This document shows positions 8,966 to 26,767 of a stretch of DNA of 64,000 nucleotides, one piece after another. Position 1 is the first letter of the stretch. Each line of letters starts with the position of its first letter. This DNA comes from Bacteroidaceae bacterium (GTDB lineage Bacteria; Bacteroidota; Bacteroidia; Bacteroidales; Bacteroidaceae): contig JAGCLA010000051.1 in NCBI GenBank assembly GCA_017647225.1, positions 1-64,000 of the forward strand, written 5' to 3'. The notes under the pieces are model-generated. The model was not told the DNA's origin. It saw nothing but the letters and a program-made list of their open reading frames with translations, and did no database searches. Both the position numbers and the translations under genes were made by a program.

Positions 8966-9006
8966 TGCAAAGAAAAAGGACAAGTGTGCAGAAGTTGTGC
9001 ACAGAT
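8966..9006 (-). promoter_or_regulatory. dyad promoter unit, copy 1 (before WG-repeat gene)
   Basis: On the minus strand the unit reads ATCTGTGCA (9006-8998), a 7-nt spacer, TGCACA (8990-8985), then TTTTTCTTTGCA (8977-8966). It is the same composite element as at 9908, 10952, 22830, 23805 and 26726. The TTTG-containing end resembles a -7 box with the dyad lying where an activator or repressor would sit. Confidence 0.5.
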
Positions 9007-9088
9007 ATAAAATATTCAAAATTTTTCTTGAGAAAGAATATAATTTCTGTGCACCTGCTGCACCGTGGAGAACTGTCGCCCCGCCAAA

Positions 9089-9814
9089 TCAATACTCAAA
9101 CAAACAGAGCAGTTCTTCCTCGTCTATCCTATCCTCGTCGTTCTCGTCAATAAACTCACCTTTCCTGCTTATGTAACCCCAGATACCTTCCTTGCACACA
9201 TAAAGGTAACCATCCTTGTCCTCGACCTCGTCATACACAGGTTCAAGATAGAAGTTGTCCATTGTGATACCGCCGAACTTGCCGTCCTTCTCAATGACAG
9301 CGATATTGTTGGAGACAGCATATATGACATCCATCTCACATGGTACAAGCATGTTGCCATCGCAGTCCATGACACCTGCAAGAAGTTTGTCCCCCACCTT
9401 CTTCCAGCACCTATAAAGCGCGCAGCTGCCGAACATGAACTTTATCATCTCGTACTCGAAACCACACAAAGGAGTTCCGTTACCGTCACACTTCACAATA
9501 GCATACTTGTCGTTGAAATTACAGGCCGGTATAGGCATTACATAACCATATCTTCTATAGGTATAGGTTTCCGAGAAGTCCTTGTATAAGGCAGGTACCA
9601 GCACTTTGCCTGCCGCATTGCGTACACCCTTCTTGCCATCCTCTTCAAACACCTGGTCAAAGAGGTCATAAGACTCCATCAACTGGTTATACTCCTCGTA
9701 CAAAGCATTAATCTCGCTTCTCTTCATTGTCACTTCCTCATTAATGACTTTAGACAATGTATCAAGGATACAATCTACACGCTCAACTACTTCTTCTGTT
9801 GCAATCTTCTTCAT
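9089..9814 (-). CDS. WG-repeat protein, paralogue of 8031-8810
   Basis: The 241-aa protein follows its neighbour from end to end: helical start (VERVDCILDTLSKVINEEV), the phrase YDLFDQVFEEDGKKGV, YAIVKCDGNGTPLCGFEY, LLAGVMDCDGNMLVPCEMD, and WGYISRKGEFIDENDEDR. At least four WG-type repeat units are visible. The two genes are separated by about 280 nt that hold a copy of the dyad promoter unit, and another copy lies upstream of this gene (9908-9955). They are therefore separate transcripts under the same apparent control. Likely cytoplasmic scaffold; no enzymatic motif seen. Confidence 0.82.
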   Translation of the reverse strand: MKKIATEEVVERVDCILDTLSKVINEEVTMKRSEINALYEEYNQLMESYDLFDQVFEEDGKKGVRNAAGKVLVPALYKDFSETYTYRRYGYVMPIPACNFNDKYAIVKCDGNGTPLCGFEYEMIKFMFGSCALYRCWKKVGDKLLAGVMDCDGNMLVPCEMDVIYAVSNNIAVIEKDGKFGGITMDNFYLEPVYDEVEDKDGYLYVCKEGIWGYISRKGEFIDENDEDRIDEEELLCLFEY

Positions 9815-9907
9815 AAAATCTATTCTGTTTAAAGTTGTTTTTTTGTATCGTAAATATATTTCAATCTATAGAACGGTGCCATTCATTCCATTCACAGCAT
9901 TTTTTTC

Positions 9908-9955
9908 TTTTGCGTAGCAAACGTAATGCTCTGCAATGCAGAGGATATGCACAGC
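9908..9955 (-). promoter_or_regulatory. dyad promoter unit, copy 2 (before second WG-repeat gene)
   Basis: On the minus strand GCTGTGCAT (9955-9947) is followed by CTCTGCATTGCAGAG (9943-9929, itself a near-perfect palindrome) and a TACGTTTG -7 box (9925-9918), which here matches the TAnnTTTG consensus exactly. The stretch 9815-10215 otherwise holds no gene that I can see. Confidence 0.45.
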
Positions 9956-10215: not shown

Positions 10216-10935
10216 TCAAATATCCAGGATTGGCTCTCCAAAGAGATGCATGTCGGCAGGGAGCGAATACTCCAATCTGCCTTTTGAAGTGCGGAGTTTA
10301 GCGAGCAGCTTGCCAAGAACGTTGCAGCCAAAGTAGTACTTTTTGCCTTCAACCTCTACAAGCTTGGCTCCCCAGAATAGGTTCGATGCATAGTTAGTGG
10401 CTGTTGCATCCTCCACCGGAAGTAGCGTGGTTGAGTGAAGGTCGGTGCGGAAATCACTGTTATCCCTGTACTTGAGATTGAGGCAGTATTTCATCCACTC
10501 GGTCTGAATCTCTTTCCAGTCGGCGCGTTCCTGCCCCTTGAACTTGGCCTTGTACTCCTGCTTCTTACGGGCATCGACTCTTTGTTGGAACAAGTTGTCC
10601 TTGAGCCAGTTATGTGCCTCTGCGCTATCCATTCGGGCCATATTGTAGAGAATCTCAATCTGACGGAAACGGAAGTCGCCGTAGTGCATCCAAGTGGCAG
10701 GCTCCTTGAGGGGGAGCACCGACATGTTGTCGAGGGAATAGAAAGGAGTACCCTGCTTTGTAATAAACGGAACGCACTCCTCCACCGGGTAGAGACCGAA
10801 CTTCTGAAGCTGCTTGAATTCCTCTTCGCTCTCGGGAATGAGAGCCTCAACTGAAGAAACGACCTTCTTCAATTCACACTTCAACTTGTTGTCTGCGAGC
10901 TGGTTCTTGATAAATTCTAATTTCATGTTCTGCAT
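10216..10935 (-). CDS. divergent NADAR-like protein
   Basis: The C-terminal half fits NADAR: W-KEIQTEWMKYCLNLKYRD (helix with the K-Y contact), LLPVEDATATNYASNLFWG, and the closing FGCNVLGKLLAKLR block. The first half is degenerate (LDNMSVLPLKEPATWMHYG instead of LSNFYP.P), so activity is uncertain. Starts at 10935 (MQNMKLEF) or 10926 are both possible; 10977 would lie inside the dyad promoter unit. The gene is a single transcription unit under copy 3 of that unit. It could be an ADP-ribosyl glycohydrolase or a non-catalytic ADP-ribose binder. Confidence 0.68.
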   Translation of the reverse strand: MQNMKLEFIKNQLADNKLKCELKKVVSSVEALIPESEEEFKQLQKFGLYPVEECVPFITKQGTPFYSLDNMSVLPLKEPATWMHYGDFRFRQIEILYNMARMDSAEAHNWLKDNLFQQRVDARKKQEYKAKFKGQERADWKEIQTEWMKYCLNLKYRDNSDFRTDLHSTTLLPVEDATATNYASNLFWGAKLVEVEGKKYYFGCNVLGKLLAKLRTSKGRLEYSLPADMHLFGEPILDI

Positions 10936-10951: not shown

Positions 10952-10992
10952 TGCAAACTAAAACCACAACTATGCAAGATTAATTCACAGAT
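10952..10992 (-). promoter_or_regulatory. dyad promoter unit, copy 3 (before divergent NADAR gene)
   Basis: On the minus strand ATCTGTG (10992-10986) is followed by a spacer, TTGCATAG, and TTTTAGTTTGCA (10963-10952). It aligns best with copy 5 at 23805-23845. The dyad is weaker than in the other copies. It ends 17-26 nt before the candidate start codons of the NADAR-like gene. Confidence 0.42.
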
Positions 10993-11004: not shown

Positions 11005-11994
11005 TCATCTGTTATATTTTTCAAGATTCCTCTTTATGGCATCAATAATTTCTTCGCGTAAAGATGATGGCGACAACACCTCTACCTGTGGCATATAAGA
11101 GAAAATCTTTTGAATAAGTTCCTTGTTTTTCTTTACATGTATTTCAACAATGCACTCCTTCTCATCAATAATCTCCTGAGAATGATGCAAAGGTTTGGAC
11201 ACGACATACGGGAACCTGTCCGGGTCAAATTTCAACTTTATATCAAGAATTTCAGCATCTTCACCAGGAACCGTAACACCAATAATGTCCTTAAAATAGT
11301 CATCTACATCAAAGAAAACATTATCATAGAACTCCTTATTCGATTTCTTGACCCCACGGATTCTGTCGAGTGCAAAATTAGAAATTCGGCCATATTTAGA
11401 CTCATAACCGAGCACAAACCACCGTCCGTTATACTGCTTAACACAGTATGGGTGAAAACAATATGTCTCCTCGTGCCCACGGTACGAACGGTACACAACA
11501 TCAATTGCCTCATGGGCAACAGTGTACTTTATTATATCGCCCAGGAACTCAAGCCCCTTCAAGTTGCGGTTCTCGTCAAAGAACACAAGTTTCTCGGTGT
11601 TGGGTACAATATCGAAACGACACTCCAGATTGGTAATGACATCCTCCAACCACACATTGGACACCTTGTACTTTGCAAGCATCTCCAGGGTTGACTTTAG
11701 AACATTGTAATCCTGGTCCGAGATGCCCGACTTGAAGATTGAATAATCCTCATCGGCATAAACATAATAGCACTTACGCCCCCAATTGGGCTTTGCATCA
11801 ATGGGAGCATCGTAAATACTCCTCATATTCTTGATATCATCACGCAACTGCCTGAGGCTTATACCATACAAGCCCTGCGCATCAAGTTCGTCATTCACAA
11901 AATCGAGCAATTCATCAATGGAATACCTGACCGCCCCACTAAAACAGCGGTCTAATATCCTGTAACGTAAAAGAGCATTTTTTGTAACGGGCAT
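11005..11994 (-). CDS. WYL-domain transcriptional regulator
   Basis: The 329-aa protein has an N-terminal winged-helix-like part (residues about 1-70, LRYRILDRCF...ISLRQLRDDIKNM) and a WYL domain at about 145-240. The WYL part is seen in IDVVYRSYRGHEETYCFHPYCVKQ and in GRWFVLGYE...NFALDRI (here the W-Y-L positions are filled by W, Y and nearby residues). A C-terminal WCX-like part follows. WYL regulators are frequent beside defence loci, where they bind an operator and sense nucleic acid or nucleotide signals. It is divergent from the Druantia-like pair, with an inverted repeat between, so it probably controls that locus and itself. Confidence 0.85.
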   Translation of the reverse strand: MPVTKNALLRYRILDRCFSGAVRYSIDELLDFVNDELDAQGLYGISLRQLRDDIKNMRSIYDAPIDAKPNWGRKCYYVYADEDYSIFKSGISDQDYNVLKSTLEMLAKYKVSNVWLEDVITNLECRFDIVPNTEKLVFFDENRNLKGLEFLGDIIKYTVAHEAIDVVYRSYRGHEETYCFHPYCVKQYNGRWFVLGYESKYGRISNFALDRIRGVKKSNKEFYDNVFFDVDDYFKDIIGVTVPGEDAEILDIKLKFDPDRFPYVVSKPLHHSQEIIDEKECIVEIHVKKNKELIQKIFSYMPQVEVLSPSSLREEIIDAIKRNLEKYNR

Positions 11995-12439: not shown

Positions 12440-15400
12440 ATGAGTTTCTTTGACAATATACTACGAAGTAGAAATATTAAATGGAATAATGATATTTATC
12501 TTTGGAGTTTGCGATTAAGTAATGATGAATATTACGAGTTGAAAGAAGCTCTAAAACACGGGGCTAAATATCGCGAGTTTACATCATTACGACGTGAAGC
12601 AACTTTATATTACGCAGAATGGTGGAGAAGAGAGTTTTCTGGGGGACACGCTAGCACAAAAGATGTTTGTGAGTCTATTTTTGGAGATGCACAACTGTCT
12701 GAAAAGCTATATGAAGCTGCAAAATGTGGAGCTAGAACTCTTAATATCCAGATAATACGAACACAAGGAGAGGAAAGAGATAGGGATAATATCAGATATT
12801 CCATATTCTACCAAGGTGGATTGCCTATGAATTATATCATCAGCGAGATTCAGAGAAGCAACTATTCAGCTTGGAACAGATTCTTCCGTAAACTTGTTTG
12901 GAAGTTGCATGACTACACTGATGTGAGTGAGAGTTTAGGAGTTACTGCACCGCTCAGTGATAGTATAAAAGCTTTCTGCGAGACATTAAGAATATCTGCT
13001 GATAGTCTTACGCCTAATCAACAGCCATACTATCATAATGAGGTCTGGTGGAATGTCATTATTAGAAACTTTGAAGAAGAGAAGCGTAAGCGTAAAGCGC
13101 GTTCTCCATTTGAATCAATATGGTTGTTTGGATTAGATGAAGTTGATAAAAAAATAAGTGTTGGATTCAAGTTCTCTGGTCCTCAGACTTTATCGGCCGA
13201 ATTTATTACCGAGCACAATCTTGTAGGGAAATCCTTTACGACATTTTCTTTACTAGTAAACAACGCTCCAGTGTTCACACCTGAATACGACAAGAGGTTC
13301 TATTGCCGTAGAAATGTTGAGAAGAATGTACTCTGCTCTGTAGGAGATACAATTACCGTGGTCATAAATGAAACAGGTGAGGTTATATCCAATAGGGATA
13401 TCAACTTCGATACACCTAAGGTAGCTTACTTAATCGATGAAGACAAGAACATATTTCGTCTAGGAGATACCCAACACCTCAAGGATGAGGTATGCAGAAT
13501 CATTGCAACAGAAGACTGGAACTGTGAATGCAAATTTGATATATTTACTATTGATGGAATTAACTACAAGGTCTTTTACCCAGAAATGGGAACAGATCAA
13601 ATGGTCTTTCACTCTGAAAGCAGAGCAGAAACTCGCACTATCAATCCAGGATCAGAATCACCTAAGACATTTATTGATTTTAGATGTGCGTTAAAACTTC
13701 AAGTACCCACAAAAGAAATTATATTTAATACAGAAGATACAGTACTTTTCTACGAGGCTTGCAATGAGACTGAAATTAATAGAGCTAGACCTTGCTCTGT
13801 ATATTATGCTGAAAAAGGAAGTCAGCAATGGATAAGTAGGCCCAAATTTGGCGAGATACGAGCAAGAGTTAGACGCTCTGATAACGAAGCTGTAGAACCT
13901 GTAAAGTTCTTAAACGCAGGAAATCTAAACATCTCATACATATCATCATCTCGTGATACATGTGAGATAAAGATAGACTGGAAGCACGGTAGCGTAGAAA
14001 CGGAGGACGCTAAAGTTGGGGAACGAGAGAATATTTGGGTTATCAATAGAAATACTTTGGCAGACCGCAGATATGCAAAATTTAAGTTTATTCCTTGCCC
14101 TGGACAAGGTTCGGAATTTACGTTGACAATACTTCCCCCGTTTTTCGGATTTAACATCTATGATAAAATGGACAGGAAGATGGGGACTAATTCCATCATT
14201 CCAATGGTAGATATCAATGATTTTAGATATTATTTCCATCTCCCTAGCATTATGCATTTGCACCCTAATGGTATTAGAGGTGATCTGAGATATGTATACT
14301 GCGAAGACAATCAAAATCACGGAAATAAAATTACTGAGTACCTATGTGGAAATAAGCAACGTAGTTCTTTCATTCCATATGAAGGTAGATTAGCATCAAT
14401 GTTCATTGATGGAAGTGAGCAGATACATAGAATGATCAATCACTCATGTTTATCTCTTCCAGATGCAGAGGCTAAGATTGCTTTCCAAGATGGGGCTAGA
14501 ACTCATATGCTAACATTTAAGGCATTTCCATACAGACTTAAGTATGAGACGGGAATGGTGATTGTAAAGAATACATCTGTACTCCCGCGTTACGACGATG
14601 ATCTTTTAGCTATCCCGATAGACACTCCCGAGTGTGAACCAGTTATCTTACAACAAAGCAAGGAACTCAGGAATTGCTATTTACTTCCTGATATAATCAC
14701 AAATAGCGCATACTCCCGCTGGCTGATATATGGAAGACTGCGTGGATATGTTCTTCCTTTTGCGATTGATACAAAAGAGGAGCTAGACAGAGGTAGAAGA
14801 GATGGTTTTAGAGCGAATAAAATCAATGAACTTAAGCACGAGTTCTTATCTGCACCAATATTTGACAGTATATGGAAAAGAGCTATCGATTGGTATAAAC
14901 GATTACCTTTAGGACGTATCCCTGGTACATCAATCCTTGAACTTGTTGCTATTGCTGATGACAATATGCTCATTAAGAAGTTTGCTTTACATCTGTGGTT
15001 TGATACATTAAACCGAAATGAATCAATGGATACGCTTAAGGCGTCTCTCATAGAATTTAGCGAGCAGATGTCATTCCTATGGGCTTGGGTAACAAATGAA
15101 AGTATCATTGACTTTGCAATAGATTACCTCAAGTCAGATGATTCCCAATTACTTAAGTATTACTATACATGGGTTCTATCACTACCAGATGATTCCAGCA
15201 AAAAACGGTATTTACTGACAAATCCAGCTCAAAAAAGAGCCGAATTTCTCTTATCTGAGTTTCAAGAGTGGCTCAATATTGTAATACAAGATGGTATGCC
15301 GCGTCAGAACCTGGAGTATCCTGATGTTAATACAAATGGTGATGGATTAATATCTAAGGAGGCAAAAGAGCACTTTGTTTGTGTCAGAGAAACAATAAGT

Positions 15401-15577
15401 AACTGGAAGAACTTAAGTCCTAACGAGCTCTGGATACAAGAAAGACATATGTTGTCTAATATTTTTCAAGCGGTATTGAACTTTGGCGATATCGATGGAA
15501 ACGAAAATATAAAGCGCGAAATACGCAAAAGCATAATTACAGGTTTAACATACAGCAATAATAGATATGAATTTTAA
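12440..15577 (+). CDS. druH: DruH-like protein of a Druantia type III-like defence locus
   Basis: This 1045-aa protein has no domain that I recognise. It begins MSFFDNILRSRNIKWNND, has a beta-rich central part (residues about 230-700) and a helical C-terminus (about 780-1045). The gene overlaps the start of the 2016-aa helicase gene by 11 nt, so the two are translationally coupled. In Druantia type III, a roughly 1000-aa uncharacterised protein (DruH) precedes a roughly 2000-aa DEAH/DUF1998 helicase (DruE). Order, size and coupling all fit; the name rests on that synteny and not on sequence motifs. Composition is AT-rich compared with the core genes. Known role of the family: anti-phage defence, mechanism unclear. 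Confidence 0.65.
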   Translation: MSFFDNILRSRNIKWNNDIYLWSLRLSNDEYYELKEALKHGAKYREFTSLRREATLYYAEWWRREFSGGHASTKDVCESIFGDAQLSEKLYEAAKCGARTLNIQIIRTQGEERDRDNIRYSIFYQGGLPMNYIISEIQRSNYSAWNRFFRKLVWKLHDYTDVSESLGVTAPLSDSIKAFCETLRISADSLTPNQQPYYHNEVWWNVIIRNFEEEKRKRKARSPFESIWLFGLDEVDKKISVGFKFSGPQTLSAEFITEHNLVGKSFTTFSLLVNNAPVFTPEYDKRFYCRRNVEKNVLCSVGDTITVVINETGEVISNRDINFDTPKVAYLIDEDKNIFRLGDTQHLKDEVCRIIATEDWNCECKFDIFTIDGINYKVFYPEMGTDQMVFHSESRAETRTINPGSESPKTFIDFRCALKLQVPTKEIIFNTEDTVLFYEACNETEINRARPCSVYYAEKGSQQWISRPKFGEIRARVRRSDNEAVEPVKFLNAGNLNISYISSSRDTCEIKIDWKHGSVETEDAKVGERENIWVINRNTLADRRYAKFKFIPCPGQGSEFTLTILPPFFGFNIYDKMDRKMGTNSIIPMVDINDFRYYFHLPSIMHLHPNGIRGDLRYVYCEDNQNHGNKITEYLCGNKQRSSFIPYEGRLASMFIDGSEQIHRMINHSCLSLPDAEAKIAFQDGARTHMLTFKAFPYRLKYETGMVIVKNTSVLPRYDDDLLAIPIDTPECEPVILQQSKELRNCYLLPDIITNSAYSRWLIYGRLRGYVLPFAIDTKEELDRGRRDGFRANKINELKHEFLSAPIFDSIWKRAIDWYKRLPLGRIPGTSILELVAIADDNMLIKKFALHLWFDTLNRNESMDTLKASLIEFSEQMSFLWAWVTNESIIDFAIDYLKSDDSQLLKYYYTWVLSLPDDSSKKRYLLTNPAQKRAEFLLSEFQEWLNIVIQDGMPRQNLEYPDVNTNGDGLISKEAKEHFVCVRETISNWKNLSPNELWIQERHMLSNIFQAVLNFGDIDGNENIKREIRKSIITGLTYSNNRYEF

Positions 15578-18500
15578 GAGTTTATATGCAGAAACTAAGG
15601 AGAACATAGAACTCGCTCTTCTTTCACTTTGGGCCCCGGCTAATCACAGAATGCGCAAAGTCATGACGGATTTAATAAGACGCGAACCACTCTTTGCTGA
15701 ACCAGTCTTTCAATCAATGTTTCCATGGAAGGATACAACTGACCCAAACTGGCGCAACTATATTGCTCCAGAAGTTGTTCAAATACAAGAAAAGAAGGCT
15801 GTGAAAAATGGATATGTGTATACACCTTTTGAGCACCAAACAAAAAGTTGGAAACAACTTAAGGATGGAAATAGTATAGTTGTAACTAGTGGTACAGGTT
15901 CAGGTAAAACAGAATGCTTTATGCTGCCTATCCTTAGTGATATTTATTCACGACGGAATAGCAACAACGGGAACGATCCTGTTGAGGCAATATTTCTTTA
16001 TCCATTAAATGCTTTAATGCAAGATCAGAAGGATAGATTGGGTTCTGATTGTCAAGAACTAGGCTTAAAATTCGCTGTTTATAATAGTTCGCTTAAGGAA
16101 AGCAAAGCAGTTGGGTCAGTAAACCCCAATTATCCCAATGCGGAGGTGAGGACTAGAACCTCTGTAAGAACAATGCAGAATAATGGAAGCCCATCTTGTC
16201 CACAGATACTCCTCACAAATCCAAGTATGCTGGAGTATATGCTTGTACGCAATAGCGACCAACCAATCTTTGAACGTTCAAAAGGTAAACTTAAATGGAT
16301 AGTTATTGATGAGGCTCATACATATACCGGATCTGCAGCTATAGAACTTGCATATCTTATTAAGCGAGTTCTTTCCGCATTTAATGTTAATCGAAGTGAT
16401 GTGCAGTTCGTTTGCACGAGTGCGACTATAGGAGACCCGAATAAGCCCCATGAGCTATTAGATTTTATTGAAACCATCACTGGAGAGATTCCTTCTGGAT
16501 GTAATCAGAGACTGGTTCATGTCGATGGAAATCGCATTGTGCCACCTATGCAGACGTCAGATGTGCAAATTGCGCTCAAGAATGTAGGATTAAGCAGTAT
16601 TTCGCCTACCAATGTCTTAAAACTTAGAGATGATATCAATAAACAACCGCTTAGTTTGTCAACGATATGGGCAACCTTATCAAATCAATCATACAGCGTA
16701 GAAAGTTGTCTAGATCTATTGGATAAACTTTGCAACATCAAGATAGACAATAATTATCTTTTGATGGCAAAAGGCCATTTTTTCATGAGAACCATAAATG
16801 GTCTATATGCTTGTGTAAACGAATGTTGTAGTGCTTATAAACTTGGAGAAGGTAGTGGATTCGGTTACCTAACAACCGAGAAAGGTGCTTCTAGATGTCC
16901 GCACTGTGGAGCGCAACTTTTGGAAGTTGTTCAATGCCGAGACTGTAAAGAGTTTATGATAGTTTGTGAGGAAAATGACAAGCATGAAGTACGCCCTACA
17001 TATGTTCTATCCGAGCAGATCAACATTGATGACGAGGATGATGGCGACAACGATGATAATGACACTGATGGAGGTATATTAACTGATGAAGGATGGCAAA
17101 AACTATATCTTGCTAATTTCGGCAATGGTCGTGTCTACACAAAACCACATCCAAACTATGAAGAATCTAAAATATCTATCAGTTGGGATGGAACAAGTCT
17201 TCTCGCTAGTGAATCCGTTAACTCTAATTGGTTCAGACTCGCAAACAACGAAAAGCTGTACTGCCCGAACTGCGTAAGCGGAAGCGGAGAAGAAGGCGCC
17301 AACTTCCGTAATTTCAGATTGTCTTCTAATTGGGTGAATGGTGTTATTGCTCCTGCTCTCCTTCAGGAGGGTCGCGATGATAATAATTATTGGGGTAAGT
17401 ATATTGCATTTACTGATAGTAGACAAGGTACTGCTATCAATGCTAAACGTTTCAATATTGACTCAGAAAGAAGTTATTCGAGAAGCCGAGTTGTTGATCA
17501 ACTCAGCGACCCAAGCAACCACCCGCAGATTAAGGGACTTATTAAGAATGGAGTATGTGGAGATACTTTGAAGCAAATTGTTGCTCTTCTGAACTTGGAT
17601 AATCAACTCCCTTTATTTAATCTCAAGTCATTTGCCGACTGTATCTTCAGTCAACATATTTTTGACCATGTTGACTATGATGCTAGCAAGCATTCTACAA
17701 GTGGTAGACACACGAAAGATGAAGAAGCATACAAAAATGCACTTCTTCGTAGCAATATTGGTAGACGACCAATGCACTTAGCCAGTCTTGAAAGCCTTGG
17801 TTTGATTACTATGTCATACCCATCAATCGAAAATGCCCAATTAACTAACAATTGGAGCAATGCAGGATTTACCCAAGAGGAATATCAAGCATTCCTTAAA
17901 ATCTGTGTAGATTTTCATATTAGAATGGGTAACCATATTCAGTGCTATTATCCAAATGAGATTCAGTATATAAGAGAGTCTAATAGGTCGACGCCATATG
18001 ATCCAGCTGATTGGCCTAAGGTTCATATTGAGAACGCACAGCCTAAAATTACTCAAAATAGATTAATCCTTTTGCTTTGTGCCGCTCTTGGTATTCACGA
18101 TATTGCATCTCTTGCACAAAACGAGCACAAGATTAACAACCTAATGAACGATGCGTGGATTTATCTTTCTACACACACTCTCAATAAGGTTGACACAAAC
18201 GATGCCTACTATAATGAGATTGATGACCAAGGTAATCACAAGTTTTATGGCTGGTACTATATTGACTTATCTCTAAATTCAGACAAGTGTAACATTAAGG
18301 CAGCACACACGCTACATGTGTGCCCGTTTAATTACAATCTGCTTGACACTACTTTTAGGGGGTATTCTCCTGCTATTAGAGGAACTGTCTGTGCAGAAAA
18401 TTTCAATAGATTCAAGTTGTCTGCTGACTCAAAGGTCTCTATGCCTATTTATAGGAGTAAAGATTTTGAAGATAAAAAGGCTGAGTTAATTTCAAAAGGA

Positions 18501-21500
18501 ATATGGAGTGATAGACATAAGTACGCTTATCAACTATCTAAGGACGGGTATCTAACTGCGGAACATTCAGGTCAGCAAGATAGAGGTATCTTGGATCATT
18601 ACACGGCACAATTTAAGTGCACACCACATAAATTAAATTTACTTCAGTGTTCAACAACTATGGAAATGGGTGTTGATATAGGTGATATTGATACTGTTCT
18701 TATGACCAGTGTACCTCCTACTAGTGCAAATTATCTTCAGCGTGCTGGTCGAGCAGGAAGACGTGGACAAAGTAAGGCTATCGCAATTTCTCTTTGTCCT
18801 CACACATCTATCGGTCTTCAAGCATTCCGCAATCCGATGAGGAATCTTATCAGCAGAAATCCTGCGATAAAGCCAGTTGAAAGTGCGATTATCGTACAAA
18901 GACATCTGAATTCATTCCTAATACGTGAGTATGTAACTGCAAACGATGTAGCATTCAATAAAGTTCATGAATGGTTGTATAAGAATGGCTTTTATAATGA
19001 ATTTAAGGATTGGATTGATGCCAGAAGAAATGATGTTAATATCAAAGATAAATTCACTAGAGTATTTGGAAATGTAAATATTTCCAATGCTATTTCTTCT
19101 GCTATAACCGCACTAGATACAATAGCATCAGATTATCAAGAAATCATTGATAATATAGAACGTGAAATCAGTAATTCCCAAGGTAATCAAGCAAAGATCG
19201 ATGCTCTATCTATTCAAGAAACAACACTTGGTAATCAAGAATTGAAGGGATATCTTGCAGAAAAACAATTCCTTCCTAATGCTGATATGCCGACGGGAGT
19301 AGTTGAATTCAATTATATTGATGCATACAACTATAAAACTTTAAAAGGAAAAATTAAAGAGTTAGAGGAGAAGAGAATAGAGCTTCAGAATGCAACATTG
19401 CGAGGTCAAGTTAACAATCTTAAGCATCGGATTCAAGAATTGGAAGAACAGATAGAAGATATTAAGAAAAAAACAGTGACATCTCGCGAAATCAAGGTTG
19501 CTCTTTCAGAGTACGCACCTGGTCAAATGGTTGTTATTAATGAACGAAACTATATTTCTGCTGGTATTGAATGGAAAAATAGTTTTGGTCAGCAACAGCC
19601 ATTGAAATATTTTTATCACTGTCCATCATGCGGTCGTTATGAATACACAGACGACTCAACATTGTCAACATGTGTTTGCGGTTCACTATATCGTAATATT
19701 CTAAATCCTAATAATCGTCAACAGTACTCTATGGCAATTGAACCGATAAGATTTAGAACTGATGTAAATAGAGGTATTAACCGCCAAGAGCATACAGTCA
19801 AGACATTCTATCAAATACAGACTGTACTTACAAATGTTGATTGGAGAAATTGTGTTGCTGGGCCTCAGTGTGATATTGTAGGATCTGACGATGCCCAAGG
19901 TGATATTGTATTCTATAATGTCGGTGCTGGCTCCGGATTCAGTTTGTGTCTTGATTGCGGTAAAATGGAGGTCACAAGATGTCAAAGAACAACAACTAAC
20001 TGGTTGCATAAGGATATTACACAACATGATGTTCCGTGTCCCGTCAACAATCCAAAGAATAATGTACTCCTTTCGGGTAAATTCCCAACCTCTTTTGTTT
20101 CATTAAGGTTCTATAAGGATGCATCACGAACAGAGTATGTAAATGACATCGACTTACTATATTCTCTTGGTGTTATTCTATGTAAATCATTGGTGCAAGT
20201 AATAGGCATTGATGATAATGAGGTTGATTTTGATGTTAGACAAGAGGGAAATTATTCATCTATTTATATCTATGATACCTCAAAAGGCGGTTGTGGCTAT
20301 TCAACCGAGTTGCTTGATAGTAGTATTCTTAATAAGACTTTCGACCTTGCAAAAGGTTTGCTTAGCTCATATACTTGCCATTGCGAGAATCAGGTTAACG
20401 GAGCTTGTGTAAGATGTCTTGTAGATAGGAACTCACAACGTTATGAGAAGAACCTCTCTAAATATAAGTTATTAGCGTGGTTTACAGGACAGACAATGTC
20501 AACGGCAGCCTCTAGCTCTGGCGCGATAGCTGTACCTATGCCGCTAAAACTTCTTGCGACTAACTTGTATTCTCGAGCGTCAAAACATGATTTCACATTC
20601 TGCGCAGATGCAAACAATATGAACGTTTTGGATTGGTCTAGCAAAGATGGTGCAATGGGAAGAATTATTCACGAGTGTATCAATAGAGGAAAGAATGTTA
20701 CGATTTTGGTATCAAATGTCCCTAATGCACAAAAAGGGGCAAAGTTAAGTGACATCATTCCATTCATAGATTTCCCATCTAAATTTCCTAATTGTATAGT
20801 AAAGGCAGTTGAGAGTTTGGAGACTTCGCCGTCTGTATATTCTGCGCTGATCATAAACAACAAAGAACATTACTTCACAGAAACAGAAGGTGTTCTTGAA
20901 TTTAATGAATACTGGGGAGACAAATGTACTCACTTATTTGAGGATAATAACATTCCATTATTTATGGATGGAATATTCCCTACATTTGATGATGTGATAG
21001 CCTTGACGCAACCAAATGAAATAACGCGTTCAGCCACATTAAAAAATCTAGGTAATGTAAGGCTTAACGAATTATATTCTATTATTAAGGGTTCATTATT
21101 TCATGGTAATGACGAACAAGATGTGTCAAGAATCTTGCATGGAAAGAAAGTGAATATAACTTTCAGCGACTCGTATGTTAATAGTGCTCTTGCAGCTCTA
21201 ATTCTAGTTAATCTTATAAAAGAGGTTAAAGAAACATACGACTTTGAAATCAATGAAGTTAATCTTCAGATTCAAGGCCCAAAGAGAAATTGTTATAATG
21301 ATAAATGGAGTAATTACACTTGGCTTTCTTGGTCGTTCCCTAACTCTAATGAGGCTGACAAATATCTTAGAGAGGTGTTTGAGGAGTACTTGGATATTAC
21401 ACCAAACTTTTCTCCAATTATCCCGGATCATTTTAGGTGGTTACGTTTCCAGCCGTTGGGCGAAAATAAATACATAGAGATTCGCCCTGATCATGGTATA

Positions 21501-21617
21501 CTTGGTGGATGGCAATCAAAGCAGGTATATGGTGATCTATATTACATAACAGAGTATAGCGAAATTGAATGTAAGGACAACATCTCAATTGTGTATTACC
21601 TTCTCATAAAAAAGTAG
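15567..21617 (+). CDS. druE: DruE-like giant helicase with DUF1998 (Druantia type III-like)
   Basis: The 2016-aa protein has a DEAD/DEAH helicase core: Walker A SGTGSGKTE (about 108-116), DEAH box VIDEAHTY (about 246-253), motif III TSATIGD (about 290), and in the second RecA domain TTMEMGVDIGDID and QRAGRAGRRG (about 1030-1070). Zinc-binding clusters lie at about 425-475 (CPHCGAQ, CRDCKEF) and about 1350 (CPSCGRY). A DUF1998-like region with GGCGYSTEL and the CHCENQVNGACVRCLVD cysteines is at about 1575-1620, and an additional 350-residue tail is unassigned. Length and architecture match DruE of Druantia; alternatives are other MrfA-like DUF1998 helicases. It is followed by a strong terminator. 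Confidence 0.8.
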   Translation: MNFKSLYAETKENIELALLSLWAPANHRMRKVMTDLIRREPLFAEPVFQSMFPWKDTTDPNWRNYIAPEVVQIQEKKAVKNGYVYTPFEHQTKSWKQLKDGNSIVVTSGTGSGKTECFMLPILSDIYSRRNSNNGNDPVEAIFLYPLNALMQDQKDRLGSDCQELGLKFAVYNSSLKESKAVGSVNPNYPNAEVRTRTSVRTMQNNGSPSCPQILLTNPSMLEYMLVRNSDQPIFERSKGKLKWIVIDEAHTYTGSAAIELAYLIKRVLSAFNVNRSDVQFVCTSATIGDPNKPHELLDFIETITGEIPSGCNQRLVHVDGNRIVPPMQTSDVQIALKNVGLSSISPTNVLKLRDDINKQPLSLSTIWATLSNQSYSVESCLDLLDKLCNIKIDNNYLLMAKGHFFMRTINGLYACVNECCSAYKLGEGSGFGYLTTEKGASRCPHCGAQLLEVVQCRDCKEFMIVCEENDKHEVRPTYVLSEQINIDDEDDGDNDDNDTDGGILTDEGWQKLYLANFGNGRVYTKPHPNYEESKISISWDGTSLLASESVNSNWFRLANNEKLYCPNCVSGSGEEGANFRNFRLSSNWVNGVIAPALLQEGRDDNNYWGKYIAFTDSRQGTAINAKRFNIDSERSYSRSRVVDQLSDPSNHPQIKGLIKNGVCGDTLKQIVALLNLDNQLPLFNLKSFADCIFSQHIFDHVDYDASKHSTSGRHTKDEEAYKNALLRSNIGRRPMHLASLESLGLITMSYPSIENAQLTNNWSNAGFTQEEYQAFLKICVDFHIRMGNHIQCYYPNEIQYIRESNRSTPYDPADWPKVHIENAQPKITQNRLILLLCAALGIHDIASLAQNEHKINNLMNDAWIYLSTHTLNKVDTNDAYYNEIDDQGNHKFYGWYYIDLSLNSDKCNIKAAHTLHVCPFNYNLLDTTFRGYSPAIRGTVCAENFNRFKLSADSKVSMPIYRSKDFEDKKAELISKGIWSDRHKYAYQLSKDGYLTAEHSGQQDRGILDHYTAQFKCTPHKLNLLQCSTTMEMGVDIGDIDTVLMTSVPPTSANYLQRAGRAGRRGQSKAIAISLCPHTSIGLQAFRNPMRNLISRNPAIKPVESAIIVQRHLNSFLIREYVTANDVAFNKVHEWLYKNGFYNEFKDWIDARRNDVNIKDKFTRVFGNVNISNAISSAITALDTIASDYQEIIDNIEREISNSQGNQAKIDALSIQETTLGNQELKGYLAEKQFLPNADMPTGVVEFNYIDAYNYKTLKGKIKELEEKRIELQNATLRGQVNNLKHRIQELEEQIEDIKKKTVTSREIKVALSEYAPGQMVVINERNYISAGIEWKNSFGQQQPLKYFYHCPSCGRYEYTDDSTLSTCVCGSLYRNILNPNNRQQYSMAIEPIRFRTDVNRGINRQEHTVKTFYQIQTVLTNVDWRNCVAGPQCDIVGSDDAQGDIVFYNVGAGSGFSLCLDCGKMEVTRCQRTTTNWLHKDITQHDVPCPVNNPKNNVLLSGKFPTSFVSLRFYKDASRTEYVNDIDLLYSLGVILCKSLVQVIGIDDNEVDFDVRQEGNYSSIYIYDTSKGGCGYSTELLDSSILNKTFDLAKGLLSSYTCHCENQVNGACVRCLVDRNSQRYEKNLSKYKLLAWFTGQTMSTAASSSGAIAVPMPLKLLATNLYSRASKHDFTFCADANNMNVLDWSSKDGAMGRIIHECINRGKNVTILVSNVPNAQKGAKLSDIIPFIDFPSKFPNCIVKAVESLETSPSVYSALIINNKEHYFTETEGVLEFNEYWGDKCTHLFEDNNIPLFMDGIFPTFDDVIALTQPNEITRSATLKNLGNVRLNELYSIIKGSLFHGNDEQDVSRILHGKKVNITFSDSYVNSALAALILVNLIKEVKETYDFEINEVNLQIQGPKRNCYNDKWSNYTWLSWSFPNSNEADKYLREVFEEYLDITPNFSPIIPDHFRWLRFQPLGENKYIEIRPDHGILGGWQSKQVYGDLYYITEYSEIECKDNISIVYYLLIKK

Positions 21618-22829: not shown

Positions 22830-22871
22830 CATCTGTGCACTTCCCATGCACAGATGATGTTTTTCTTTGCA
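22830..22871 (+). promoter_or_regulatory. dyad promoter unit, copy 4 (before small ORF and amber NADAR)
   Basis: CATCTGTGCA (22830-22839), 7-nt spacer, TGCACAGATG (22847-22856), then TTTTTCTTTGCA (22860-22871). This is the most perfect dyad of the family. The hairpin could also end transcription of the gene before it, but the T-run is displaced by 3 nt from the stem. Confidence 0.5.
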
Positions 22872-23122: not shown

Positions 23123-23767
23123 ATGGCATTTTTTGGAAAGATGAAACACTACTCTATTGAGAGTATGGATGAGTTGTTGGCAAGTGTTGGGCATCTGCGT
23201 CCCTATCTGCGCGTGTATGATGAGAAGGAGAGTATTCTCTTTAACTCCAGAAGCAGGGGCGAGAGCAAGATTCTTAGTAACTTTCATCCAAGCAGTGTTC
23301 CGCTTCCCTGGAGGGGTAAGTTGTTCAACAGCGTCGAGGCTATGATTTTCTATACCTATATTGAGGATAATTGCAAGAACCCCAAATGGGAGGAGAAGAA
23401 ACGCGAGGTTCTTGAACAGATTCTTGCCACCAATCATGGACGTGAGGTGAAGGAGATTAACCGCGAGTCGAAGCTCTACAGCAAGGTGCGTAAGGCTACA
23501 GTGTCCGAGATTGGTGAGGATAATTGGGATTTGTATGCCTGGAAGGTTGCCTGTGATGCCGTTAAGGTAAAGTATGAGCACTGCCCCGAGTTCCGCAGTT
23601 TTGTAGATGCCAACCACGGCAAGTCGTTCATCGAGAACAGTTGGTAGAAGAAGATTCCTAAGGCTGGTGTGTTGAAGGTCACTGATGAGGCAAGTCCTTA
23701 CTTCGGCAAATACATTGGTTGCAACTTCACCGGTGTTGCCATTCAGCGTTGCCTGGAGGATGGCTGA
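23123..23767 (+). pseudogene. NADAR-family gene interrupted by an in-frame TAG
   Basis: The first 174 codons give a clear NADAR protein: KILSNFHPSSVPLPW, then the FNSVEAMIFYTY helix, NWDLYAWKVACDAVKVKYE, and FVDANHGKSFIENSW. A TAG stop stands at 23645-23647. The same frame continues for 39 more codons to TGA at 23765-23767, reading KKIPKAGVLKV and YIGCNFTGVAIQRCLEDG, which is the conserved NADAR end (compare FTGPNLLGRLLMEL in 2495-3106). Alignment with that paralogue (TTWRKKKP versus NSW-stop-KKIP) shows that one residue is replaced by the stop. A single base change from AAG, CAG or TGG would do this. It is either a recent nonsense mutation, a sequencing error, or programmed readthrough. Confidence 0.75.
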
Positions 23768-23804
23768 TTTTTTTATCTTTTCCTAAACACACACAAAAAA
23801 TATT

Positions 23805-23845
23805 ATCTGTGCATTACCTCTGCATAGATGATGCTTTTCTTTGCA
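23805..23845 (+). promoter_or_regulatory. dyad promoter unit, copy 5 (before rmuC)
   Basis: ATCTGTGCA (23805-23813), 7-nt spacer, TGCATAGAT (23821-23829), then CTTTTCTTTGCA up to 23845. One G:T mismatch in the dyad. It lies about 120 nt before the rmuC start. Confidence 0.5.
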
Positions 23846-23963: not shown

Positions 23964-25364
23964 ATGGAAATAATTTTTGCAATCGTTTTGGGAGTGGTAT
24001 TGGGTGCGTTCATTGGCTTTGTAGTGGCACGTGGTAAGAATAAGGAGCAGCAGAACATCACCGACAAGCTACGTTGGCAATTGGAAAACGAAAAGTCCAA
24101 CGCAGAGCTTGTGTCACAGAGTCTGCAACGGCAGATTGCAAACACAAAGAGTGAGGCAAGGGAGCAGATAGAGAGCATAAAGGCAGACTGCGAGAAGCGT
24201 GTTGCAGAGATCAGGAGCGATGCCGAGAAGCAGAGCGCTGATGCTTTGGCAGCACAGGAGAAGAGACACGAGGAGGCCATCAAGGCACAACAGGGGCTCT
24301 TTGACGAGACTATGGCAAAGGTTACTGCACAGGTAAAGAGTGCTACCGATGATATGCTCAAGCAGCGCCAGAAGGAGTTTGCCGAGTCAAGCAACACCAA
24401 TCTGGGGCAGATTGTAAACCCGCTGCGCGAGACAATAGAGAAGATGAAGCAGACCATGAACGACAGCACGCTCAAGCAGACCGAGCTGAGCAGCGAGATG
24501 AAGGTTAACCTTGAGAACATGATGAAGCACAGTGAGGCTGCAAAGCAGAGCGCTGACGAACTTGCGCGTGTGTTCAAGCACAAAAGCAAGGTGCAGGGTG
24601 ACTGGGGCGAGCGTGTACTCGATGAGTTGCTCGCGTCACAGGGCTTGACACAAGGCATTCACTACGACATTCAGGCAACCATTCGTGATGCTGCCGGCAA
24701 CGTGGTGCGAACCGACACAGGTAGCAACTTGCGCCCCGATGTCATCATGCACATTGACAACAACCGCGAAATCATCATCGACTCAAAGGTGTCACTTACA
24801 GCCTTCTGGGACTACATCAATGCCGAGAATGAGGAGGACCGTCAGAAACACCTGAAGGCGCATATCGAAAGCATCCAGAGACATGTGAAGGAACTGTCTA
24901 AGAAGGACTACTCCTCATACATAAAGGCACCCAAGGTGAGAATGGACTATGTGATAATGTTTGTATCACACACCGGTGCCCTGTGGACAGCGCTGAACGC
25001 GCAGCCCGACCTTTGGCGCAAGGCTATGGAAATGAACGTGTTCATTGCCGACGAGCAGACTCTCTTTGCTGCGTTGAGAATGATAAGTCTCACCTGGGCA
25101 CATATTGCACAGGCCGAGAACCACGAAAAAGTATATGAGCTCGCGAACGAAATCCTTGACAGGGTTGGCAAGTTTATGAAGAGCTACGAGAATATCGGCA
25201 AGGCTATTGAGAGTGCCCAGAAGGCATACGAGGATGGAGAGAAGAAACTCACCCCTGGCGGACAAAGTATAATCAATACCTGTGCAAAGCTGGAAAAGCT
25301 CGGTGCAAAGCAGAGTTCAAAGAACCCTATCAGGCAGATTGAATCGGTCACAGGCATCGAGTAA
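23964..25364 (+). CDS. rmuC: DNA recombination protein RmuC family
   Basis: The 466-aa protein has an N-terminal membrane helix (residues 3-22, IIFAIVLGVVLGAFIGFVVA), a long coiled coil (about 25-190), and the RmuC domain (about 200-420) with KSKVQGDWGERVLDELLASQG, LRPDVIMHIDNNREIIIDSKV and YVIMFVSHTGALWTAL. The D-x-K pattern (IDSKVS) resembles a PD-(D/E)XK nuclease core. RmuC proteins limit recombination at inverted repeats and have been linked to DNA processing. Its placement here, inside accessory DNA, behind copy 5 of the dyad unit and followed after 95 nt by the ADP-ribosylglycohydrolase gene, suggests a role in the island rather than housekeeping; that is inference. Confidence 0.9.
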   Translation: MEIIFAIVLGVVLGAFIGFVVARGKNKEQQNITDKLRWQLENEKSNAELVSQSLQRQIANTKSEAREQIESIKADCEKRVAEIRSDAEKQSADALAAQEKRHEEAIKAQQGLFDETMAKVTAQVKSATDDMLKQRQKEFAESSNTNLGQIVNPLRETIEKMKQTMNDSTLKQTELSSEMKVNLENMMKHSEAAKQSADELARVFKHKSKVQGDWGERVLDELLASQGLTQGIHYDIQATIRDAAGNVVRTDTGSNLRPDVIMHIDNNREIIIDSKVSLTAFWDYINAENEEDRQKHLKAHIESIQRHVKELSKKDYSSYIKAPKVRMDYVIMFVSHTGALWTALNAQPDLWRKAMEMNVFIADEQTLFAALRMISLTWAHIAQAENHEKVYELANEILDRVGKFMKSYENIGKAIESAQKAYEDGEKKLTPGGQSIINTCAKLEKLGAKQSSKNPIRQIESVTGIE

Positions 25365-25459
25365 CCTTTGCAGGATATCATGCAAGAGAGAGTACTGGCA
25401 GAATTATGTTCAACAACAAGCCTATGCAGTAACAGGCAAGACAAAATCATTCAATCACA

Positions 25460-26707
25460 ATGACAAAAGATTCCAAAACCCGTATCATTGGCGCCATCAT
25501 TGGCGATGTCGTTGGCTCGACTTTTGAATTTGTCAACAAGATTCCCGCTAAGTTCAAACTCTTCAGAAATGCTTGTTCCTTTACCGATGACACGGTGCTG
25601 ACAGTTGCTATTGCAGACGCATTGTTGCATAACAGAACGTTTGCCGACGCTATTTGCGATTGGGGAGAGCGTTATACATACGCCGGCTTTGGTGGTTCAT
25701 TCCGCGAATGGAAAAAGCGTCGTAAGAAAGATCCTAATGCTACAAACAATAGCAAGGGAAACGGTTGTGGCATGAGGGTGAGCCCTGTAGGTTTTTGGGC
25801 AAAGTCGATTGACGAAGCGATGTCGCTTGCCAAAGAGAGTGCCATAATCACCCACAACTCGCCCGAAGGCATTGCCGGGGCGCAGGCTATTGCCACGGCG
25901 GTGTTTATGGCAAAGGAGCAGAGGGGCAAGGAGGAGATTAAGCAATTCGTGGAAAAGACGTTCGGATATGACCTCGATTTAAGCTACGAAGAGATTTGGA
26001 GCAAGGTAAACGAGTATGACAATGTAAACAAACTGCGTCGTGAACGTGAGTGGGCAGAGAACACCTGCCCGGTGGCAATCATAGCATTCCTGAATTCCAA
26101 CAGCTATGAGGAGACCATAAGAACTGCTATTTCATATGGCGGTGACGTTGATACCATTGCTTGTATGGCTGGCGGTATAGCAGCCGCATACTATGGTGTA
26201 CCCCAGGATATCATTGACGGCGTTGCACCATATTTGCCCCAGGATATCATTGATGTCGTAAATGAATTCGACGGCTTGACTCTTGTGAACCGAAACACAC
26301 CATCGCAGATTGACCGCTGGGTAAAGAAGGGACATGTACTTGTATATGGAAGCGGTAAAGATTTTGCAGGAAAGACAAAGAGCGGTAGCCTTCTGAGGAA
26401 TAATGAACCTGTCGGCTATATAGCCAACCGTCGCTTCGGGTCAAAGCACCAGTTGGAAGGTCTGGCAGGTAATTCCTATGCCATACCAACGGTTGGAGTC
26501 ACATTGGAAGAGATTGGCAAAGGAGTGGAAAGGTTTACTGCCTTTGTCAACGAACATCCCGACCTGGTTTTCCTTGTCACAAACATAGGATGCTCCCCAA
26601 AGGCGGGGTTCACACCAGCTGAGATTGCCCCATTATTCAGTTGCATTGCCGACAATGCGAACGTGATGCTTCCCAAGGAGTTCCGCGACATGATTGAAAA
26701 ATGTTGA
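25460..26707 (+). CDS. ADP-ribosylglycohydrolase with extra C-terminal domain
   Basis: Residues 8-280 form a DraG/ADP-ribosylglycohydrolase domain: IIGAIIGDVVGSTFEF, the metal motif FTDDTVLT (41-48), GNGCGMRVSPVGFW, ITHNSPEGI, and the second metal motif YGGDVDTIACMAGG (about 226-239). The C-terminal part (about 295-415) is a separate domain: VLVYGSGKDFAG, GLAGNSYAIPTVGVTLEEIGK, FLVTNIGCSPKAG, IAPLF and NVMLPKEF. This resembles a small alpha/beta family seen in phage and bacterial genomes, but it lacks a firm name here. The enzyme family removes ADP-ribose from proteins or DNA. The fusion suggests an ADP-ribose or nucleotide ligand shared by both parts. Confidence 0.85.
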   Translation: MTKDSKTRIIGAIIGDVVGSTFEFVNKIPAKFKLFRNACSFTDDTVLTVAIADALLHNRTFADAICDWGERYTYAGFGGSFREWKKRRKKDPNATNNSKGNGCGMRVSPVGFWAKSIDEAMSLAKESAIITHNSPEGIAGAQAIATAVFMAKEQRGKEEIKQFVEKTFGYDLDLSYEEIWSKVNEYDNVNKLRREREWAENTCPVAIIAFLNSNSYEETIRTAISYGGDVDTIACMAGGIAAAYYGVPQDIIDGVAPYLPQDIIDVVNEFDGLTLVNRNTPSQIDRWVKKGHVLVYGSGKDFAGKTKSGSLLRNNEPVGYIANRRFGSKHQLEGLAGNSYAIPTVGVTLEEIGKGVERFTAFVNEHPDLVFLVTNIGCSPKAGFTPAEIAPLFSCIADNANVMLPKEFRDMIEKC

Positions 26708-26725
26708 ACAAAATGTATTTTTCAC

Positions 26726-26767
26726 TTATCTGTGAGCAAAAACTGCACAGATAACATTTTCCTTCGC
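26726..26767 (+). promoter_or_regulatory. dyad promoter unit, copy 6 (before DUF1810-HD gene)
   Basis: TTATCTGTG (26726-26734) and CACAGATAA (26746-26754) are perfect 9-bp arms with an 11-nt spacer, followed by CATTTTCCTTCGCA. It sits between the ADP-ribosylglycohydrolase stop (26707) and the start at 26788. Confidence 0.48.

What the first reader, a model, noticed from the sequence alone, without database searches (positions are those of the whole stretch)
8966..26767. A shared dyad promoter unit links WG-repeat, NADAR, RmuC and DUF1810-HD genes into a probable regulon
Six copies of a 41-48 nt composite (ATCTGTGCA, spacer, TGCACAGAT or close, then TTTTCTTTGCA or close) stand before genes at 8810(-), 9814(-), 10935(-), 22942(+), 23964(+) and 26788(+), each oriented toward the gene, on both sides of the Druantia-like locus. 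Copies on different strands follow gene direction, which argues for promoter/operator function and not for a random repeat. A decayed copy lies at 27823-27860 before a gene remnant. Half-sites occur before the ART gene (3722-3729) and before 28331. This joins ADP-ribose chemistry and scaffold genes into one control circuit.
Basis: partly seen in the sequence, partly recalled or inferred. Interest (0 to 1): 0.82.

Follow-up and report, generated by a model that had tools for sequence, protein, structure and literature searches.

The report
Shared switch for bacterial defence genes
A short two-armed DNA site repeated before five or six genes in this gut-type bacterium is very probably the landing site of a WYL-domain gene switch encoded beside it, and the same switch-and-site pair sits next to many different anti-virus systems in related bacteria.

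Summary
Observation mostly confirmed. Five copies of ATCTGTGCA-N7-TGCACAGAT + 5 nt + TTTTCTTTGCA are far above chance; a sixth (9956-9916, minus) is probable; the 'decayed' copy and the ART half-site are not supported. The dyad is confined to this island (5 of 7 genome places at <=3 mismatches). Its relatives carry the same composite: 51 of 76 named loci within 400 bp of the WYL gene, usually over its last codons, with a fixed-distance -7 box and an ATG a median 38 nt on. Genes behind it include type I RM, Druantia III, Thoeris, CBASS, PARIS-like, BrxA, DUF2130, LigT and WG genes; ADP-ribosylglycohydrolase/A1S_2505 genes recur nearby. So this is a WYL regulator-operator cassette for defence genes. 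The window is an expanded copy (5-6 promoters) over WG/AAA, NADAR, RmuC-ADP-ribosylglycohydrolase and DUF1810-HD units. The dyad takes the -33 position, as for the WYL activator DriD; activation is favoured, repression not excluded. No binding or expression was measured.

The parts
8966..9006 (-). composite operator-promoter before the WG-repeat gene 8031-8810 and, behind it, the AAA gene 6253-7938
   Evidence: 27/29; core 17/17; equivalent site before the WG-AAA block in L044
9916..9956 (-). probable weak copy before WG-repeat gene 9089-9814; carries a TAnnTTTG -7 box
   Evidence: 20/29 (chance level) but core 15/17 in register
10952..10992 (-). composite copy before the NADAR gene, 12 nt after the WYL stop codon
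   Evidence: 24/29; comparable place to the WYL-adjacent dyad of relatives
22831..22871 (+). composite copy before a 53-aa ORF (22942-23103) and an interrupted NADAR-like gene
   Evidence: 29/29
23805..23845 (+). composite copy before the RmuC - ADP-ribosylglycohydrolase pair
   Evidence: 28/29
26728..26768 (+). composite copy before the DUF1810-HD gene
   Evidence: 25/29; core 14/17
28282..28306 (+). dyad without -7 box before the 28331 gene; doubtful member
   Evidence: core arms 11/12; -7 block 4/11
11005..11994 (-). WYL-WCX regulator (329 aa), proposed to bind the dyad
   Evidence: Pfam WYL 1.7e-12 and WCX 4.3e-12; relatives co-occur with the dyad
10216..10926 (-). NADAR-domain protein (target)
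   Evidence: Pfam NADAR 1.1e-8; 59.5% homologue beside the WYL of L044
9089..9814 (-). WG-repeat protein (probable target)
   Evidence: Pfam WG_beta_rep
8031..8810 (-). WG-repeat protein (target)
   Evidence: Pfam WG_beta_rep; 42.5% identical to 9089-9814
6253..7938 (-). AAA ATPase, IetA/IteA-like; likely in the WG operon
   Evidence: PADLOC IetA 4.2e-28; 56% homologue behind WG in L044
5807..6247 (-). 146-aa protein behind the AAA gene; likely in the WG operon
   Evidence: 72% homologue at the same place in L044
22942..23103 (+). 53-aa ORF, first ORF behind copy 22831
   Evidence: direct reading; no Pfam match
23123..23647 (+). NADAR-like gene with an in-frame stop (interrupted)
   Evidence: Pfam NADAR 0.00092, below cut-off
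23964..25364 (+). RmuC protein, island copy; another rmuC lies elsewhere in the genome
   Evidence: Pfam RmuC 9.2e-81; second copy without composite
25460..26707 (+). ADP-ribosylglycohydrolase with a C-terminal A1S_2505 domain
   Evidence: Pfam 2e-43; NCBIfam A1S_2505 1.2e-18
26788..27792 (+). DUF1810-HD protein (target)
   Evidence: Pfam DUF1810 1.8e-49, HD 8e-8
12440..21617 (+). Druantia type III-like pair DruH/DruE between the two halves of the regulon; no composite in front
   Evidence: PADLOC DruE3 E=0, DruH3 1.7e-17; no dyad

Best explanation
The repeated unit is an operator-promoter. CTGTGCA-N7-TGCACAG, a 21-bp dyad, is the binding site of a homodimer of the WYL-WCX protein encoded at 11005-11994(-). 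The TTTG(CA) block 13 nt downstream is the -7 box of the Bacteroidota main sigma factor. The dyad is centred near -32 and occupies the place of the -33 box, so RNA polymerase probably needs the WYL protein to fire (DriD-like activation). The regulator would sense a damage or infection ligand through its WYL/WCX domains and switch on WG/AAA, NADAR, RmuC-ADP-ribosylglycohydrolase and DUF1810-HD genes together. In most relatives that have it, the operator overlaps the last codons of the WYL gene, so regulator and operator travel as one cassette with whatever defence operon lies behind. The window is an expanded version in which the site stands before further promoters. Shown here by sequence: the site, its register with the -7 box, its restriction to the island, and its co-occurrence with the WYL gene. 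Inferred: binding, dimer, activation rather than repression (about 60:30), the ligand, and the defence role.
For: Genome-wide restriction: 5 of 7 places at <=3 mismatches in the island. Of 24 core composites (<=1 mismatch) in 19 WYL+ genomes, 21 lie within 13 kb of the WYL gene; 42 genus mates (G000 and G019 set aside) have 3 in all, one beside another WYL type. Of 24 WYL loci, 17 carry a composite of >=15/17 that none of 100 shuffles reaches. Four Druantia loci have arms of 11/12 at the WYL end, though shuffles reached their total score in 4-13 of 100; three of the four also have a 16/17 composite 32 nt before DruH (gene names). Named set: 51 of 76 within 400 bp of WYL, 0 in 588 kb of shuffles. 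Spacing N7 in 12 of 20 loci, N15 in 2, no other of N0-N20. TA of the -7 box, not used for selection, in 64 of 82 sites; TTG at -33 spacing in 3 of 82 against 40 of 132 dyad-less promoters, p=5e-7. Median 38 nt (near sites) and 37 nt (others) to ATG. Of 29 DUF1810 loci elsewhere none has a composite >=15, so the site follows the WYL, not the effector. DriD sites lie over a poor -35 at fixed distance from -10 (PMC12340889, passages). Best profile matches in the PDB: WYL proteins 7u02 and 7tzv (2.7e-5, 2.9e-5); 7TZV is a DriD complex according to PMC12340889.
Against: No binding, transcription start or ligand data. 25 of 76 named loci have no composite within 400 bp of the WYL; 18 of these have none anywhere in the stretch held. 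Of the 24 first-set loci L027, L043 and L148 have nothing convincing. The dyad's own letters forbid TTG at the commonest spacing, so the missing -33 box follows from the register and is not independent proof of activation; in Flavobacterium no -33 motif was found at all (PMC7366714). Known defence WYL regulators BrxR (E. fergusonii) and CapW repress. The -7 box in the five clear window copies is TTnnTTTG or weaker, not TAnnTTTG. PDB profile matches are weak. About 20 of the 76 named loci are contigs already in the first set (judged by eye from contig lengths), so the sets are not independent. 12 of 82 sites have no ATG ORF of >=80 aa within 200 nt.
Confidence: 0.78

Rival explanations
1. Same WYL protein and same operator, but it represses (BrxR/CapW-like): it blocks polymerase at -33 until a ligand releases it.
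For: E. fergusonii BrxR and CapW repress, and both bind repeats near promoters; the Acinetobacter BrxR site covers about -51 to -27; WYL/Nudix regulators of ADP-ribosylglycohydrolase systems were predicted to be negative (PMC9503650, passages).
Against: The Acinetobacter BrxR promoter has canonical -35 and -10 boxes. Here the -33 box is excluded by the dyad and the window -7 boxes are weak, so the promoter would be poor without help.
Confidence: 0.3
2. The unit is an intrinsic terminator or other RNA hairpin of the upstream gene (stem followed by a T-rich stretch).
For: Two window copies fold well (z -4.6 and -5.2) and are followed by T-rich DNA.
Against: The other six of eight folded copies have z -1.1 to -2.9; 15 of 26 sites have at least one broken arm pair of seven; what is conserved downstream is TA..TTTGC at fixed distance, not a T run; the site sits a median 38 nt before an ATG and often inside the upstream coding sequence.
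Confidence: 0.04
3. A promoter class read by some other factor (ECF sigma or unlinked regulator), with the WYL gene beside it by chance of gene order.
For: A few sites lie in stretches without a WYL gene, e.g. L124, L125 and L127, two of them on short or contig-end pieces.
Against: 21 of 24 strong sites in WYL+ genomes are in the WYL locus and genus mates without that WYL have few; the site stays at one place relative to the WYL gene in 30 of 47 loci of many genera.
Confidence: 0.08
4. The dyad is a by-product of a conserved C-terminal peptide (SVQxxCT) of the WYL protein.
For: In 36 of 47 sites on the WYL 3' side the whole dyad is in the WYL coding sequence.
Against: In the window the site lies after the stop codon or kilobases away; second copies stand before other operons in the same loci at the same distance to ATG; the -7 box has no coding reason. 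Codon counts at the site are circular because sites were chosen by sequence.
Confidence: 0.03

Closest known systems
BrxR family (PMC9122601: outline, abstract, passages; PMC9122589: passages)
   Same: WYL-domain dimeric regulators beside diverse defence systems, binding inverted repeats with a short spacer near promoters.
   Different: E. fergusonii BrxR represses; repeats of 10-11 bp with a 5-bp spacer upstream of brxR; predominantly in Proteobacteria. Here N7 spacing, Bacteroidales, site mostly at the 3' end of the regulator gene, no -33 box.
CapW (PMC9122588; passages)
   Same: WYL regulator of a defence operon (CBASS), palindromes of 19-24 bp.
   Different: Represses; palindrome covers the -10 site, not the -33 position.
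DriD (PMC12340889, a preprint; passages) and PafBC (abstract listing only)
   Same: WYL activators; the DriD palindrome overlaps a poor -35 at fixed distance from -10 and serves several promoters.
   Different: DNA-damage regulons in Caulobacter/mycobacteria; ssDNA ligand not tested here.
WYL/Nudix-controlled ADP-ribosylglycohydrolase systems predicted in PMC9503650 (passages)
   Same: WYL regulator placed with ADP-ribose-removing enzymes.
   Different: Prediction from gene neighbourhoods; the passages seen give no operator, and the text holds no RmuC or DUF1810.
WYL domains co-localised with defence genes in soil and gut genomes (PMC10924106; passages)
   Same: WYL genes beside defence genes, including PARIS, in gut bacteria.
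   Different: Co-localisation only in the passages seen; no site or promoter.

Membership tests
WYL-domain defence regulators (broad kind) | WYL domain followed by WCX domain | tested here: met
   Pfam WYL and WCX over gathering cut-offs
WYL-domain defence regulators (broad kind) | N-terminal DNA-binding winged helix | tested here: inconclusive
   No HTH model matched at E<=0.01; conserved N-terminal region in A1; structure prediction switched off
WYL-domain defence regulators (broad kind) | Gene beside anti-phage systems | tested here: met
   Druantia III here; RM, Druantia III, Thoeris, AriA-like, BrxA, CBASS genes in relatives
BrxR/CapW | Inverted repeat near the promoter of the controlled operon | tested here: met
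BrxR/CapW | Sequence membership | tested here: inconclusive
   Profile match to 7t8k (BrxR) E=0.67 and to 7qfz (WYL protein) E=0.0048, weaker than to 7u02/7tzv
BrxR/CapW | Acts as a repressor | not testable with these tools
   needs expression data
DriD/PafBC-type activator | Site over the -35 (-33) position, fixed distance to the proximal box, poor distal box | tested here: met
   against PMC12340889
DriD/PafBC-type activator | Activated by single-stranded DNA | not testable with these tools
   needs biochemistry
Bacteroidota main-sigma promoter | -7 box TAnnTTTG | tested here: met
   61 of 82 sites in relatives; in the window only the weak copy 9956-9916 is exact, the others are TTnnTTTG or weaker
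Intrinsic terminator | Stable stem directly followed by a T run | tested here: not met
   two of eight copies do fold well

The most novel reading that the evidence does not exclude
Bacteroidales carry a portable regulator-operator cassette. The 3' end of a WYL activator gene doubles as the activator's own operator and as the -33 replacement of the next operon's promoter, so any defence operon landing behind the gene is wired to the same inducing signal at once. Further copies of the site can then recruit extra operons, as in this window, where one signal would switch on defence and ADP-ribose-removing enzymes together.
Probability: 0.42. Interest if true: 0.8.

Novelty: new variant of a known kind. 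Interest (0 to 1): 0.66.

Why it matters
I know of little work on how Bacteroidales, dominant gut bacteria, switch on their anti-phage systems. A single recognisable site of 17 core letters marks promoters of many different defence operons and gives a regulator to purify and a reporter to build. It can also serve as bait: genes behind the site with no known role (WG-repeat, DUF2130, A1S_2505, DUF1810-HD proteins) become candidates for defence or recovery functions.

Tried and rejected
Rejected: 'decayed copy' at 27825 (one arm only) and ART half-site at 3721. The ATCTGTGCA arm alone is only moderately enriched (36 found at <=1 mismatch, 21 expected, sd 4.3), so half-sites prove little. Druantia as a regulon member in this window: no dyad before 12440. 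Terminator reading. A single-sequence scan for relatives of the WYL found none; the alignment scan worked. DUF1810 loci elsewhere as a test of a gene-family-bound site: of 54 other genomes with a match, the 29 loci handed out were scanned; none has a composite >=15, one has 14/17; the matches cover the DUF1810 domain only. WYL hits on plasmids (16 records, 28-37% identity) were not followed up. No paper on this site was seen in the listings (open-access library only).

Against my reading: 25 of 76 named loci lack a near composite; codon counts at the site are circular; the two locus sets overlap; the label tree shows some clustering (22 of 500 shuffles as low); no random-gene baseline for defence content was run; one core match elsewhere in the own genome (C3:65043) lies inside a gene.
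Full report
Check of the observation. The composite ATCTGTGCA-N7-TGCACAGAT-N5-TTTTCTTTGCA stands at 9006-8966(-), 10992-10952(-), 22831-22871(+), 23805-23845(+) and 26728-26768(+) with 24 to 29 of 29 letters. Twenty random 64-kb sequences of the same dinucleotide make-up gave on average 0.05 sites of 22 or more and none of 23 or more. The sixth claimed copy, 9956-9916(-), has 20 of 29, which chance alone gives about twice per window. Its core (TGTGCA-N7-TGCACA-N13-TTTGC) is however 15 of 17 in exact register and its -7 box is TACGTTTG, so I count it as probable. The 27825 copy and the 3721 half-site have one arm only. The 28331 half-site is a two-arm dyad without a -7 box.

Not a genome-wide repeat. 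In the 2.13-Mb, 88%-complete genome the dyad occurs at 7 places with up to 3 mismatches: 5 in this island and 2 elsewhere that lack a full TTTGC block. In 43 genus mates the matches with up to 2 mismatches are 4 places in 3 genomes, followed by at most 8 of the 11 letters of the -7 block.

The regulator. The gene between the NADAR and Druantia genes, 11005-11994(-), encodes a WYL-WCX protein (Pfam). Homologues at E<=1e-60 were found in 19 of 399 family genomes and 6 of 393 order genomes, each count including the own genome. In 24 WYL loci of 2.6-4 kb, 17 have a composite of at least 15/17 that 0 of 100 shuffles reached. Four Druantia loci have arms of 11/12 at the WYL end but no -7 block, a total that 4-13 of 100 shuffles reach. 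L027, L043 and L148 have nothing convincing. Three of the four Druantia loci also have a composite of 16/17 32 nt before DruH at the far end of the operon (L055, L056, L058). In the fourth genome (G266) the same composite lies about 2.2 kb upstream of DruH. Genome-wide, 24 core sites with at most 1 mismatch occur in the 19 WYL+ genomes and 21 of them lie within 13 kb of the WYL gene. The exceptions are one inside a gene (G019), one before an ORF that I take by eye for an aminotransferase (G370) and one before a SAVED-HNH gene of CBASS type (G084). In the 42 genus mates other than G000 and G019 there are 3 such sites: one beside a different, 301-aa WYL type, one before an HD-domain gene, one before a WG-like gene whose match is below Pfam's cut-off.

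A second, named set. A profile scan of one genome for each of 84,980 species gave 76 loci, by their titles nearly all Bacteroidales; about 20 are contigs already seen. A composite of at least 15/17 lies within 400 bp of the WYL in 51 of 76; 28 more sites lie elsewhere in the loci; 18 loci have none. Shuffles of 38 of these loci gave 0 in 588 kb. Of 82 distinct sites, 70 have an ATG-start ORF of at least 80 aa within 200 nt, at a median distance of 38 nt for the 47 sites near the WYL and 37 nt for the 23 others. Of 47 sites at the WYL 3' side, 40 have their left arm and 36 their whole dyad inside the WYL coding sequence; 30 of the 47 are centred at exactly the same place relative to the aligned protein end. 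In the window and in its genus mate L044 the site lies past the stop codon.

Promoter layout. In 26 hand-picked sites the letters after the dyad read TAnnTTTGCA on majority, which holds the -7 box of the Bacteroidota main sigma factor (TAnnTTTG, with TTTG near -33 in B. fragilis; PMC7366714, passages). In the 82 named sites TA is present in 64 although it was not used for selection. TTG at the -33 spacing (18-21 nt) occurs in 3 of 82, against 40 of 132 dyad-less promoters with a peak at 20 nt (Fisher p=5e-7). A first, smaller comparison gave 1 of 26 against 16 of 40. The dyad's own letters fill that place, so the exclusion is built into the register. The dyad centre falls near -32 if transcription starts about 5 nt after TTTG (inference). 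This is the layout of DriD sites, which lie over a poor -35 at a fixed distance from the -10 (PMC12340889, passages). CapW represses and covers the -10; E. fergusonii BrxR represses; the Acinetobacter BrxR site covers a canonical -35 (its direction of control was not in the passages seen). I therefore favour activation at about 60:30 over repression.

Cargo. First genes behind the 70 sites fall into 25 single-linkage sequence clusters, 18 of them single genes. Pfam N6-methylase matches 24 of 70, AAA_15 5, DUF2130 4, BrxA 2, SMODS 2, LigT 2, SAVED 1 (first 25 of 36 families shown); single PADLOC type I methyltransferase models match up to 19 of 70 and AriA 4 (first 25 of 197 families shown). 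ThsB and Druantia III DruH/DruE were seen in the first set. On a tree of 43 of the 74 near-full-length WYL proteins (those with a first gene behind a near site), the label 'largest, methylase-rich cluster behind it' needs 10 changes, of which well-supported branches force at least 6; shuffled labels need 13.1 on average and 22 of 500 are as low, so the label is partly clustered. The cassette has thus been paired with different operons repeatedly. Loci were fetched for their WYL gene and not for defence, but no random-gene baseline for defence content was run.

The ADP-ribose part. The same-genus locus L044 has NADAR, WYL, WG and AAA genes plus a 136-aa one, with sites on both sides of the WYL. 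Parts of the window ADP-ribosylglycohydrolase/A1S_2505 protein match proteins in 5 of the 76 loci, L184, L193, L197, L216 and L244, all of which have a composite. In L193 the match is the first gene behind a site; A1S_2505 was confirmed by NCBIfam in L197 and L216, and a fused ADP-ribosylglycohydrolase in L216. LigT-type phosphoesterases were confirmed by Pfam in L193, L216 and L051 (the same contig as L244), and look alike by eye in L197. DUF2130 is in L184 and L051. L051 also has NADAR and PARG genes and an ART-like gene below Pfam's cut-off. The window pair RmuC - ADP-ribosylglycohydrolase/A1S_2505 fits this pattern with RmuC in the place of DUF2130. NADARs remove ADP-ribose from guanosine in RNA and DNA, PARG-type enzymes from RNA 2'-OH (PMC11833690, passages). 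DUF1810 genes elsewhere (29 loci of 54 other genomes) do not carry a composite of 15/17 or more: the site follows the WYL, not the effector family. WYL control of ADP-ribosylglycohydrolase systems was predicted before (PMC9503650, passages).

Verdict. A real, island-restricted regulon with an identified candidate regulator, and an instance of a wider Bacteroidales defence-control cassette. New, as far as my searches show, are the operator, its place at the regulator gene's 3' end, and the multi-operon ADP-ribose/WG/RmuC regulon. The kind (WYL regulators of defence) is known. Binding, direction of control, ligand and defence activity remain to be measured.

Noticed in passing
window 2495-3699: An ART-PolyVal/DUF3990-like gene (below Pfam cut-off) directly before a NADAR gene; same pair (37% and 58.5% identical) in L051. 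Looks like a toxin-antitoxin pair of the DarT/NADAR kind; no supported dyad in front.
   Followed up: partly
window 23123-23770: NADAR-like gene interrupted by an in-frame TAG; the reading frame continues behind it.
   Followed up: partly
L133-L137 and L140: A second WYL type (300-301 aa, starting MISKTF; broken or cut in L140) in genus mates has TRTGCA-N7-TGCATA plus a TTTGC block 22 nt before its own gene, and in L134 and L135 a second dyad before a small gene: perhaps a sister, self-regulated system.
   Followed up: partly
window 25460-26707 and L216:876-2498: ADP-ribosylglycohydrolase fused to an A1S_2505 domain, in opposite domain order in the two genomes; the domain stands alone in L197.
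   Followed up: partly
window 5807-8810 and L044:10211-13160: Conserved WG-repeat + IetA-like AAA + 136-146-aa gene block, possibly an undescribed defence module.
   Followed up: partly
L127:706-1887: Perfect 17/17 site before a SAVED-HNH gene on a 3.8-kb contig without a WYL gene.
   Followed up: no
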